Assembly (NCBI GenBank): GCA_009692615.1 | Contig: SHYW01000047.1 | Location: 1-34,726 of the forward strand | Origin: Deltaproteobacteria bacterium | GTDB taxonomy: Bacteria; Desulfobacterota; Binatia; UBA9968 | DNA length: 34,726 nt | Reading direction: 5' to 3' | Part shown: positions 1-2,680 of the stretch, piece by piece | Layout of the letters: each line of letters opens with the position of its first letter | How positions within the stretch are numbered: the first letter of the stretch is position 1 | Position numbers and translations under genes: made by a program | Notes under the pieces: model-generated | Databases searched by the model: none | What the model was told of the DNA's origin: nothing | The model's input: the letters and a program-made list of their open reading frames with translations, nothing else

Positions 1-1
1 T

Positions 2-337
2 GGCGCGCTGCTGCAAATCCATCGAGAGCTGGAAGAATCGGCGAGTGTTGCCGGCGACAACTGGTTCGGCATATTTAGGCGGATTCTTGTGCCATTGCTC
101 TCGCCCGCCTTTCTCGCTGTAGGGGTAATCATTTTTCTCACCGCGATGAAGGAGATCAGCGTCATCATCATTTTGTATTCAACCGATACCAGGGTATTGT
201 CCTTACTCATGTTTGAGCATTACATCGGGCATTCGCCTGAGAAGGCCATGGTGGTCGGCACGATCATTACAGCGCTCGTCACCGTAACGGCGCTGGCGGC
301 GAGACGTCTTGGTTTGAGGATTGGCGCGCGAGAATAG
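2..337 (+). CDS. ABC transporter permease, Fe(III)/2-aminoethylphosphonate type (3' end)
   Basis: This is the C-terminal part (about 111 residues) of an inner-membrane permease of the binding-protein-dependent family; the 5' end lies outside the window. The visible protein starts with the cytoplasmic EAA loop, which docks the ATPase: the segment LEESASVAGDNWFGIFRRI followed by LVP has the expected E-A...G...I..P spacing. Two hydrophobic helices follow (about residues 30-50 and 85-105), and the protein ends in a short basic tail. FbpB/ThiP-like permeases have two fused permease units, so this may be the second unit; the substrate cannot be read from the fragment. No other transporter subunit follows. 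The gene ends with TAG at 335. Confidence 0.8.
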   Translation, partial: GALLQIHRELEESASVAGDNWFGIFRRILVPLLSPAFLAVGVIIFLTAMKEISVIIILYSTDTRVLSLLMFEHYIGHSPEKAMVVGTIITALVTVTALAARRLGLRIGARE

Positions 338-605
338 CTCAACGGTGAATCAATGTAGCTTTACTTGTCGAGCTATTCTGCAGTGCGCTCCATGGCGGAC
401 TGGAAAGCATGTGAAAAGTACAGTAAGCAGTAGGCATTACCGCGGCGAGGAACCGAGATGGCAATTTTGTCTCTGTCGATAGCGTTGTCCCATTACGACC
501 GGCATATACCGTTATTCGACGGCTCGGTGACGGCTGAGGGTGTCAATGGCGGAGAGAAAATGTGCCAGATAGCGGCGCAATAGTGTACCAGTCGGGTACA
601 TTAGA

Positions 606-649
606 GGCGGTAGGATTGAATTGAATTCATTCAGTTCAATCCTACCGCC
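606..649. repeat. Perfect 15-bp inverted repeat (hairpin)
   Basis: The arms GGCGGTAGGATTGAA (606-620) and TTCAATCCTACCGCC (635-649) are perfect reverse complements, and pairing can continue for about five more bases after one mismatch. No T-tract follows on either strand, so it is not a standard intrinsic terminator. It could be a miniature element end, a protein-binding palindrome or a processing site. Confidence 0.6.
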
Positions 650-814
650 AAATCTTGCGATTTTCAGAGGTAAAATTAGGATTTAGGGCCATCGTTTAGC
701 GCGTTTTTTTGAAACACGACATTTGGGTCAGATTTTTGCTTGCTTATGGTTTTCTCAAACGATTCGATCCTGGGGCTTTTCTTACTGTCCGCCTTTTGTC
801 CGTGTACGTGAAAC

Positions 815-863
815 AACAAGCCCCAAGAGCTACCACCTACGGCAGCGCTCGGGGCTTGTTTTT
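815..863 (+). terminator. Intrinsic-terminator-like hairpin, possibly ending a small RNA
   Basis: The arms AACAAGCCCC (815-824) and GGGGCTTGTT (851-860) pair over 10 bp. A further GAGC/GCTC pairing lies inside after a two-base bulge, and the T-run continues to 863. This is a textbook Rho-independent terminator on the plus strand. It is about 480 bp past the permease stop and no protein gene precedes it closely, so it may end a small RNA transcribed from the 650-815 region; I could not identify a secure promoter for one. Confidence 0.55.
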
Positions 864-1138
864 GTTGGGCTGTGTAGGCTCGTCTAGGTTCTAGTCACGA
901 TTGATCTTCGAATGGCGTTCAAAAAAAAGAATGCCAGCCTTCTAAAATTCTGAAAAAAATCTGGAGAAATTTTGTTTGTGAGGTTCTGGCCATGACTATG
1001 GACCACTGAAAACCAATATTTAAATGCCACCCCCTTCAACCGCGACGCATCCGATCCGCGCGACAATGGCCGCCGAAAGATTCCACACGATCGCCGCGGG
1101 CCGGCTCTTTATCTTCGCAACGGAACGTTGATTCGTGG

Positions 1139-1157
1139 AACCGGAACCGTTCCGGTT
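1139..1157. repeat. Palindrome upstream of higBA
   Basis: AACCGGAAC (1139-1147) and GTTCCGGTT (1149-1157) are perfect 9-bp arms around a single C, followed by three more T. It lies about 40 bp upstream of the higBA promoter. It could be a weak terminator insulating the operon or a second regulator site. Confidence 0.45.
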
Positions 1158-1196
1158 TTTGTGGGAATTGACGGGTAAAACGCGGGACTTTCGTGA

Positions 1197-1225
1197 TTGA
1201 CAAGCATAGCTTGTCAGCCTAAGAT
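1197..1225 (+). promoter_or_regulatory. higBA promoter with overlapping palindromic operator
   Basis: A consensus -35 TTGACA (1197-1202), a 17-bp spacer and a -10 TAAGAT (1220-1225) form a strong sigma-70-type promoter. An inverted repeat TGACAAGC-ATA-GCTTGTCA (1198-1216) covers most of the -35 and the spacer. In HigBA systems the antitoxin binds such a palindrome to repress its own operon, so this is the likely HigA operator. The predicted transcription start is near 1232, almost at the higB ATG. Confidence 0.75.
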
Positions 1226-1233
1226 ATTTCTCA

Positions 1234-1512
1234 ATGATCGCGTCGTTTAAGCACCGGGGTCTTAGGATGCTTTTTGAAGACGATGACCCGCGCCGGCTAT
1301 CGGCGGCCCAGGTGGACAAGATCAAACGCATCCTCGCCCGGTTGGATGAATCGACAGAAATAAAGCATATGGCCTTACCCGCCTTCGGGCTCCATCCGCT
1401 CAAGGGCGATCTCAAAGGCTTCTGGGCGGTCTCGGTGTCGGGCAACTGGCGCATCATCTTTCGCTTTAACAATAGCAACGCGTACGATGTCGATCTCGTC
1501 GATTATCACTAG
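1234..1512 (+). CDS. higB: Toxin HigB, RelE/ParE superfamily
   Basis: This 92-residue protein is a full-length HigB-type mRNA interferase. HigB toxins cut mRNA on the ribosome and are held inactive by HigA. The sequence shows the family signature: an N-terminal IASFKHRGL segment, a central IKRILARLD helix, the LHPLKGDLKGFWAVSVSGNWRI-type strand region (about 58-77) and a C-terminal DVDLVDYH end. The toxin precedes the antitoxin by 11 bp, the typical hig order. No Shine-Dalgarno sequence precedes the ATG, and the promoter sits so close that the message may be leaderless. The pair lies just left of a tRNA fragment, fitting cargo of an integrated element. Confidence 0.93.
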   Translation: MIASFKHRGLRMLFEDDDPRRLSAAQVDKIKRILARLDESTEIKHMALPAFGLHPLKGDLKGFWAVSVSGNWRIIFRFNNSNAYDVDLVDYH

Positions 1513-1523
1513 GAGAAAAAACC

Positions 1524-1805
1524 ATGGCCATGAAAAACCCGCCCCATCCCGGACTGTCGGTGCGCTACGATTGCCTTGAAGCGCTCAACATCTCGGTAAC
1601 CCAAGGCGCGAAAATCCTCGGCGTCACGCGCCAGGCGCTCAACAACCTGGTGAACTGCAAAGCGGCGATCTCCCCTGTAATGGCGATCCGGCTCGACAAA
1701 GCCTTCGGCGGCGGCGCCGAAACCTGGCTTCGACTCCAGGCCACCTACGACCTCGCCCAGGCGGCAAAGTACGCCGACAAAATCAAAGTCCGGCGCGTCG
1801 CCTAA
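1524..1805 (+). CDS. higA: Antitoxin HigA, XRE-family HTH
   Basis: This 93-residue antitoxin neutralises HigB and represses the operon. The helix-turn-helix is visible at about residues 25-48 (SVTQGAKILGVTRQALNNLV), followed by the family's typical ISPVMAIRLDKAFGG and AETWLRLQATYDLAQA segments. A good ribosome site, AGGAG (1512-1516), overlaps the higB stop region and serves the ATG at 1524, although an in-frame ATG six bases downstream is also possible. Unlike higB, this gene has its own strong ribosome site, which would favour antitoxin synthesis. The length is normal for the family. Confidence 0.93.
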   Translation: MAMKNPPHPGLSVRYDCLEALNISVTQGAKILGVTRQALNNLVNCKAAISPVMAIRLDKAFGGGAETWLRLQATYDLAQAAKYADKIKVRRVA

Positions 1806-1901
1806 GCCCCTAAAATCAATTTTACTCCAGCGAACTGTCTCCATCCCCTGTCTCCAACAATATTTCCGTTAGCAAATCCAACAAGTTGGAATCACTGTCC
1901 A

Positions 1902-1951
1902 CGCGGCTCATATCCGCGGCGTCGCAAGTTCGACTCTTGCCACCGCCACCA
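1902..1951 (+). tRNA. 3' half of tRNA-Met(CAU): probable integration-site remnant
   Basis: The 3' half of a tRNA can be folded exactly. The anticodon stem is CGCGG/CCGCG (1902-1906, 1914-1918) with loop CTCATAT carrying anticodon CAT. A five-base variable loop follows, then the T-stem GCAAG/CTTGC around TTCGACT (1924-1940), the acceptor strand CACCGCC (1941-1947), discriminator A and encoded CCA (1949-1951). The matching 5' acceptor strand GGCGGTG and a D-arm are absent from the preceding 150 bp, so this is a fragment and not a functional gene. Tyrosine-recombinase elements often integrate in tRNA 3' halves and leave this kind of duplicate. The orientation places the element to the left, containing higBA. 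Confidence 0.72.
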
Positions 1952-1960
1952 ACTTTCTCC

Positions 1961-2680
1961 CTAGAATTTATTCGTCCAGTCCGAACGCCCATACTTCTGT
2001 CGCGTCAATTCATCCGTGCGCTGCCACCGCAGCACGCCAACTTCACTATCGGCCTGCCAAATATCTCGCAGCCCCCGGACCAAGTGGTCGGCGCTGAGTT
2101 CCAGATTGGCGACGAATTCTAAATGGCGCCGATTATCGCGATACTCGGGCTGCTTCGGCGGTAATAACAAACAGCGCTCGATCACCGCGAGATCGAACTT
2201 AACCAGAAACGTGCCGTGCACCAGCACGTAGCGCGCTTTGCGATATTGGGAATTGCCGGAGAATTTGCGTCCGCCAATCGTCAGATCGCTCACCCCGCTA
2301 ACGGCGATTTCGCGTCCGGTTGAGCTTTCGATCAATTGGCGGTGGCGTTGCAGAACAAAGTCAAAAGCTCCGGCAATATTTTTTATTTCGTGAAATTGAG
2401 CATCCAAGATCAACGAGTAATTGAGACAGCCGGGCCCGAGCACCACGGCGCCGCCGCCGCTCACCCGGCGCAGGATGGGAATCTGCGCCGCACCGCACGC
2501 CGTGACATTGGCTTCCGCGGCCAAGCGATTCGAATGACCGAGCACGACAAAATAATTTTTCGGCTGCCAAACTCTCAACAGGCCGCCGTCCATGAAGTCA
2601 TTTTCACACGATTCAAGCAGCGCTTCGTCACAAGCGAGATTGCGCGCCGGTTCGGCAAATGTGAGATCGAGATATTTCAC
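1961..2680 (-). CDS. lplA: Lipoate-protein ligase A family protein
   Basis: This protein (239 residues) belongs to the BPL/LplA family, which attaches lipoate or octanoate to lipoyl domains. Visible motifs are RRVSGGGAVVLGPGCLNYSL (about 91-110), equivalent to the RR.SGGGAV..D.GN..YS motif with Asp replaced by Gly-Pro, and GGRKFSGNSQYRK (about 158-170), whose Lys is the conserved lipoyl-adenylate-binding lysine. HGTFLV follows as usual. It starts with GTG at 2680 and has no strong ribosome site. It lacks the C-terminal accessory domain of E. coli LplA, as many short family members do. It is divergent from aceE across 61 bp, so it probably lipoylates the adjacent E2. Octanoyltransferase activity (LipM-like) cannot be excluded. 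Confidence 0.85.
   Translation of the reverse strand: MKYLDLTFAEPARNLACDEALLESCENDFMDGGLLRVWQPKNYFVVLGHSNRLAAEANVTACGAAQIPILRRVSGGGAVVLGPGCLNYSLILDAQFHEIKNIAGAFDFVLQRHRQLIESSTGREIAVSGVSDLTIGGRKFSGNSQYRKARYVLVHGTFLVKFDLAVIERCLLLPPKQPEYRDNRRHLEFVANLELSADHLVRGLRDIWQADSEVGVLRWQRTDELTRQKYGRSDWTNKF

What the first reader, a model, noticed from the sequence alone, without database searches (positions are those of the whole stretch)
1902..1951. Half tRNA-Met(CAU) as the scar of an integrated element
Anticodon arm, T-arm, 3' acceptor strand and CCA fold exactly, but the 5' half is missing. Integrases that use tRNA genes leave such 3' duplicates at the far end of the element. The orientation implies the inserted DNA lies to the left, so higBA and the gene-poor stretch would be its right end and lplA-aceEF the old chromosome.
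Basis: partly seen in the sequence, partly recalled or inferred. Interest (0 to 1): 0.6.

Follow-up and report, generated by a model that had tools for sequence, protein, structure and literature searches.

The report
Half tRNA scar of genomic island
A broken half of a methionine tRNA gene marks the end of a mobile DNA element that inserted itself into that gene in a bacterium; this is a well-known kind of scar, supported here by a close relative that shows both ends of a related element at the same place.

Summary
Window 1902-1951 is the 3' half (anticodon arm to CCA) of a tRNA-Met gene. In relatives an intact tRNA-Met stands here, between a phosphatase gene and lplA. A same-genus genome, G002, shows both ends of a related element: phosphatase, intact tRNA-Met, tyrosine-integrase 3' end, N run, end of higA, degraded half tRNA, lplA. 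The inserted DNA lies to the left. The left junction is not in this assembly: no intact copy of this tRNA, no 5' half, no phosphatase and no kinase was found, and the contig starts at window base 1.

New: four tRNA-Met element ends share a twin motif, spaced 13 nt, starting 65-67 nt before the anticodon stem. Searching 25 family genomes with it returned these four and one unknown close match, which precedes a half tRNA-Val(CAC); the window's own genome holds the matching unoccupied tRNA-Val locus. This element lineage probably uses two tRNA genes with nearly the same anticodon arm. It is a new member of a known kind.

The parts
1902..1951 (+). 3' half of tRNA-Met(CAU), elongator type: anticodon arm 1902-1918, variable loop 1919-1923, T arm 1924-1940, 3' acceptor strand 1941-1947, A 1948, CCA 1949-1951; the displaced chromosomal half of the target gene (attR scar)
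   Evidence: sequence; 46/50 with G004 tRNA-Met; relatives' intact genes at the same place
1902..1918 (+). probable core of the attachment site: CGCGG CTCATAT CCGCG; crossover inferred in or beside the anticodon loop
   Evidence: likeness to an intact tRNA begins at the anticodon stem in four of the five scars seen, and three bases further in (GGCTCATATCC) in G017 C305; the tRNA-Val scar has CGCGC CTCACAT GCGCG
1835..1859 (+). twin direct repeat CTGTCTCCA / CTGTCTCCA spaced 13 nt; candidate integrase arm-type binding sites at the element's end
   Evidence: same spacing and nearly the same distance (-67 or -65) in five scars; binding itself inferred
1234..1512 (+). higB, RelE-like toxin gene (PF05015), at the element's right end
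1524..1805 (+). higA, antitoxin gene (HTH_3, PF01381); its 3' end and the following bases recur at the right end of the G002 element
2..337 (+). 3' end of an ABC-transporter permease gene (PF00528), cut by the contig start; presumed cargo
   Evidence: that it belongs to the element is inferred from position
338..1233 (.). gene-poor stretch (48% G+C) with hairpins 606-649 and 812-863; pieces recur elsewhere in the family, two of them near G017's C417 scar
1961..2680 (-). lplA-type lipoate ligase, the old chromosomal flank
   Evidence: PF21948; beside tRNA-Met in relatives

Best explanation
The half tRNA is the attR scar of an integrative element (genomic island) whose tyrosine integrase recombines at the anticodon arm of the tRNA-Met gene that stands between a phosphatase gene and lplA. 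Integration split the resident gene. Its 5' half was joined to a 3' half brought by the element (intact tRNA plus integrase gene at the far left end), and the displaced resident 3' half stayed next to lplA. The element's right end carries twin repeats (1835-1859), probably integrase arm sites, and higBA, which plausibly acts as an addiction module that keeps the element. Shown: the half gene, the intact gene at this place in relatives, and a related element with both ends in G002. Inferred: that the integrase acts on these sites, that higBA stabilises the element, and that an intact copy of this tRNA exists beyond the assembly gap.
For: Intact tRNA-Met beside lplA in 8 of 30 lplA loci and beside the phosphatase in the 9 tRNA-Met loci that I read for it (8 of 8 by tblastn; L089, the query's source, by position). 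G002 has both element ends at this locus. G010 has an intact tRNA-Met followed at once by a frame with the integrase-like signature LMRHTNLTTTTKYL, cut by its contig end. G017 has two further tRNA-Met halves broken within three bases of the same place. The twin motif lies at -67 or -65 in all five scars, and it led to a new half tRNA-Val scar in G002, whose right flank matches the flank of the window genome's intact tRNA-Val, 78% over 604 bp.
Against: The left end, integrase and intact tRNA of this very element are not in the assembly; none of the 12 integrase matches found is close to G002's (best 25-33%). The G002 element has an N run of unknown true length, a truncated higA and a degraded scar. 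The G010 piece gets no integrase match in Pfam. G017's right ends are not alignable with those of G000 and G002 beyond the twin motif and core. The tRNA-lplA neighbourhood is not universal: 22 of the 30 lplA loci show no intact tRNA-Met within the bases fetched, and in G006, G007, G009, G012 and G019 of the same family the two lie on different contigs.
Confidence: 0.93

Rival explanations
1. Decay or deletion: the 5' half of a resident tRNA-Met was lost by an ordinary deletion or rearrangement with a breakpoint in the gene, with no integrase involved.
For: No integrase match and no intact tRNA lie on this contig.
Against: Nearly the same breakpoint recurs in G002 and in two G017 scars, and an equivalent one in a tRNA-Val half; the twin motif lies at -67 or -65 in all five; G002 has the integrase end and the intact tRNA at the other side.
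Confidence: 0.04
2. Misassembly: contig 47 is a chimera joined at the tRNA-Met repeat.
For: The genome is in 186 contigs, the contig starts 1901 bp from the scar, and the expected left neighbours are missing.
Against: The assembly of G002, another genome, has the same succession of higA 3' end, twin motif, half tRNA and lplA.
Confidence: 0.02
3. The half is part of a working split, permuted or trans-spliced tRNA, and the organism has no ordinary gene for this tRNA.
For: No intact copy was found in the 98.7% complete assembly.
Against: No matching 5' half exists in the assembly at up to 3 mismatches. Two neighbouring genes are missing too, which points to an assembly gap. All 20 other family genomes with a hit have an intact copy.
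Confidence: 0.01

Closest known systems
tDNA-integrated genomic islands as catalogued by Islander (PMC4383910; passages seen)
   Same: Regenerated tRNA on one side, displaced tRNA fragment in the same orientation on the other, tyrosine integrase inside. 3' fragments (3760 of 3919 islands there) and anticodon-centred crossovers (2083) are both common; tandem arrays are described.
   Different: Here the far end is unassembled in the window's own genome and is read from a relative. I did not match the element lineage or its twin end motif to a named element.
Integrases whose gene runs across attP (Mx8 and SSV, named in a passage of PMC4383910)
   Same: The G002 integrase frame, open from 533 after the N run to 980, runs on into the tRNA at 940-1016.
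   Different: Only a 3' piece of the G002 gene is readable; whether the overlap is translated is unknown.
Toxin-antitoxin-stabilised integrative elements, e.g. mosAT of SXT (PMC2654960; abstract and outline seen)
   Same: A toxin-antitoxin pair on an integrated element.
   Different: Here the pair is HigB-like with an HTH antitoxin; its role in keeping this element is not tested.

Membership tests
tRNA-targeting genomic island (tyrosine integrase) | Displaced tRNA fragment at one end in correct orientation | tested here: met
   1902-1951, + strand, 3' half
tRNA-targeting genomic island (tyrosine integrase) | Regenerated intact tRNA at the other end | tested here: inconclusive
   Not in this assembly; present in G002 at the same locus
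tRNA-targeting genomic island (tyrosine integrase) | Tyrosine integrase gene inside, near attL | tested here: inconclusive
   No integrase match in the 1901 bp available; in G002 PF00589 at E 6e-7, 29.8 bits over cut-off 27.1
tRNA-targeting genomic island (tyrosine integrase) | Unoccupied site in relatives | tested here: met
   8 loci with intact tRNA-Met 20-748 bp from lplA
Integrative and conjugative element | Relaxase and conjugation genes | not testable with these tools
   Only 1901 bp of the element are on the contig
type II toxin-antitoxin higBA | HigB-like toxin gene followed by an HTH antitoxin gene | tested here: met
   PF05015 E 1.4e-16; PF01381 E 2.8e-7

The most novel reading that the evidence does not exclude
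A lineage of integrative elements in this bacterial family uses a conserved twin-repeat end to insert into two different tRNA genes, Met(CAU) and Val(CAC), because their anticodon arms are nearly the same (CGCGS CTCAYAT SCGCG). It also piles up in tandem at tRNA-Met in some genomes (G017), so that one anticodon-arm shape is a recurrent docking site.
Probability: 0.55. Interest if true: 0.4.

Novelty: new member of a known kind. Interest (0 to 1): 0.28.

Why it matters
It gives a precisely mapped island boundary, an occupied and an unoccupied form of the same site, and a short end motif that found a further scar by search. It also warns that an apparently missing essential tRNA in a draft genome can be an assembly gap at an island. 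In general terms the phenomenon is well known.

Tried and rejected
Rfam and ARAGORN on the whole window, and Rfam on 1700-2200, found nothing for the half gene. One pattern of mine was one base too long and missed even the window's own copy, so one search is uninformative. An exact search for this genome's own 3' half gave no match in genome contigs or viral contigs; a looser pattern gave none in viral contigs. Both collections may leave out the window's own or very near genomes. The looser pattern in genome contigs gave 47 stretches, some from other phyla; by script every tRNA copy in them is preceded by a 5' half. The twin motif has 2 exact matches in viral contigs, inside reading frames and with no half tRNA after them; set aside as chance. 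The G002 integrase piece had no relative in viral contigs or plasmids. My integrase profile contained the G002 row, so its hit there is by construction; the Pfam match is the independent test. Many short matches to the G010 piece are only the tRNA read in antisense and were dropped. G001 has 5.3 kb between tRNA-Met and lplA but no second tRNA half (next best 28/50): not counted as an island. In one search, 59 of 148 class genomes match window 1-1901, mostly in higBA or in short repeats; only the G002:C225 place was read as an element end. Of the 9 twin-motif hits, four with 2 mismatches have no half tRNA behind them; four of the other five served to make the motif, so only the tRNA-Val site is an independent prediction.

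Paper searches (listings): one paper held Binatota, integrase and tRNA together, none held Candidatus Binatia with genomic island, none held the myxophage Mx8 terms. This speaks for that library only. Two papers were opened: passages of one, abstract and outline of the other.

Full report
Observation. Window 1902-1951 has an anticodon arm with CAT, a five-base variable loop, a T arm, the 3' acceptor strand, A and CCA, in canonical register. It matches the 3' half of G004's intact tRNA-Met at 46 of 50 bases; the next best place in the window reaches 28, and 3 shuffles reach 25-28. ARAGORN and Rfam at default settings miss it, as does a permissive Rfam search of 1700-2200. Cut at 1902, a truncated match to the tRNA/tmRNA clan appears at E 5.7e-5, below the gathering score.

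Where the gene belongs. The window's genome has 5,048,122 bases in 186 contigs and is 98.7% complete. It is unnamed. A family relative, G020, has a contig of the same length (17,795) as a record titled Candidatus Binatia, and G002's contig C225 (25,287) has the length of one titled Deltaproteobacteria bacterium MAG; the taxon is inferred from that. In 25 family genomes a tRNA-Met pattern gave 24 places in 21 genomes: 21 intact genes and 3 halves. The halves are this one and two in G017, which also has two intact copies. The four genomes without a match are 71-87% complete. Of 30 lplA loci fetched (of 32 matches in 31 genomes), 8 have an intact tRNA-Met convergent with lplA, 20-86 bp away in seven and 748 bp in one. 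In the other 22 there is none within the bases fetched. These include this genome and G017 (halves), G002 (contig end) and G001 (tRNA 5.3 kb away); in G006, G007, G009, G012 and G019 tRNA-Met and lplA lie on different contigs, so the neighbourhood is not universal. The gene upstream of the tRNA is a calcineurin-like phosphatase in the 9 tRNA-Met loci that I read for it: 8 of 8 by tblastn, plus L089, the query's source. The unoccupied order is therefore phosphatase, tRNA-Met, lplA, aceE. In the window, higBA and a gene-poor stretch stand where the tRNA 5' half and the phosphatase should be.

A relative with both ends. A DNA search of 148 class genomes with window 1-1901 hit G002:C225 at 189-420, 84% identical to window 1656-1887. 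There the order is phosphatase, intact tRNA-Met (1016-940, minus strand), an integrase 3' end pointing at the tRNA (PF00589, E 6e-7), a run of 21 N, the end of higA, the twin motif, a degraded half tRNA, and the end of lplA. The contig's start overlaps the end of the lplA contig C385 by 99 identical bases. G010 has an intact tRNA-Met followed directly by a frame with an integrase-like C-terminal signature before its contig ends, though Pfam does not call it. In G017 the half tRNA on C305 is followed by a piece 64% identical to that G010 sequence over 56 residues, about 15 of which are the tRNA read in antisense. That would fit an inner junction of a tandem array; this is inference.

Missing left end. 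In the window's own genome no other copy of this 3' half (up to 3 mismatches), no 5' half, no phosphatase and no upstream kinase was found. Of 37 tRNA matches, 30 came with loci that I read with ARAGORN; they hold two other CAU tRNAs, one of initiator type and one that I take, from recall, for the Ile2 type. Of the 7 without loci, four appear in other loci; three were not read, and their spans of 83-86 bases are longer than tRNA-Met. As a control, the phosphatase and kinase queries match relatives at 56-65% (8 of 8 loci) and 77-82% (6 of 8 loci) by tblastn in a script, which is not the same tool. With the contig starting at window base 1, this points to an unassembled stretch, not to loss of an essential tRNA.

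The element's end. Four tRNA-Met scars (G000, G002, two in G017) carry two 8-base repeats of the form YTGYCYCC spaced 13 nt, starting 67 or 65 nt before the anticodon stem; one repeat in G017 C417 has a mismatch. The G000 and G002 ends are homologous (67 of 90 identical, 0 of 5000 shuffles), and so are the two G017 ends (71 of 90, 0 of 5000). Between the two groups the rest is not alignable (26-30 of 90, reached by 439-1419 of 5000 shuffles). A 25-base consensus, up to 2 mismatches, gave 9 places in 7 of 25 genomes, with none for the backward control pattern. Four are the scars it was made from. The fifth close match, G002:C75:1307, was new: 67 nt after its start begins the 3' half of tRNA-Val(CAC), 49 of 50 identical to the window genome's own tRNA-Val, over the Rfam tRNA cut-off as a truncated gene. 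Its right flank matches the flank of the window genome's intact tRNA-Val, 78% over 604 bp; the match begins 78 bp after the tRNA here but 805 bp after the scar in G002, so about 730 bp there are unexplained. The other four hits, all with 2 mismatches, have no half tRNA. The Met and Val arms, CGCGG CTCATAT CCGCG and CGCGC CTCACAT GCGCG, differ at three positions, which suggests why one lineage can use both.

Mechanism. The best reading is site-specific integration by a tyrosine integrase with crossover in the anticodon arm. The element supplies a new 3' half, so the tRNA is whole again at the left end, and the old 3' half remains at the right end. That the twin repeats are integrase arm sites and that higBA helps to keep the element are inferences.

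Verdict. The finding is correct and ordinary in kind: Islander (PMC4383910, passages seen) lists 3919 such islands. The added value is the comparison of occupied and unoccupied sites and an end motif that predicted a scar in a second tRNA gene.

Noticed in passing
window genome, contigs C72, C50, C98, C156, C183, C124, C82, C14 (loci L099, L100, L102, L103, L105, L106, L107, L101): 8 of the 12 integrase matches in this genome lie near a tRNA (7) or the tmRNA (1) gene, so many tRNA genes seem occupied by elements. Contigs C98, C183, C124 and C82 begin within about 550 bases of the integrase match.
   Followed up: partly
L099, L106, L107; L095 533-980: Integrase reading frames run into the 3' part of the neighbouring tRNA gene, as described for integrases that extend across attP.
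   Followed up: no
window 1139-1191: A palindrome-bearing sequence (ACCGGAACCGTTCCGGTT...) recurs in other family genomes, at 89% near G017's C417 scar and on both strands in G005:C863; a dispersed repeat or shared operator.
   Followed up: no
window 606-649 and 953-1155: A hairpin with 21-nt arms, and a 200-bp stretch repeated at 83% in the same genome on contig C114.
   Followed up: no
L093 6531-7703 (G017:C174): Two intact tRNA-Met genes about 1.1 kb apart, the second preceded by part of the first one's upstream sequence.
   Followed up: partly
L094 (G001:C38): About 5.3 kb between tRNA-Met and lplA without a recognisable second tRNA half.
   Followed up: partly
L178 (G002:C75), 1424 onward: About 730 bp between the half tRNA-Val and the conserved chromosomal flank have no counterpart beside the window genome's tRNA-Val.
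   Followed up: no
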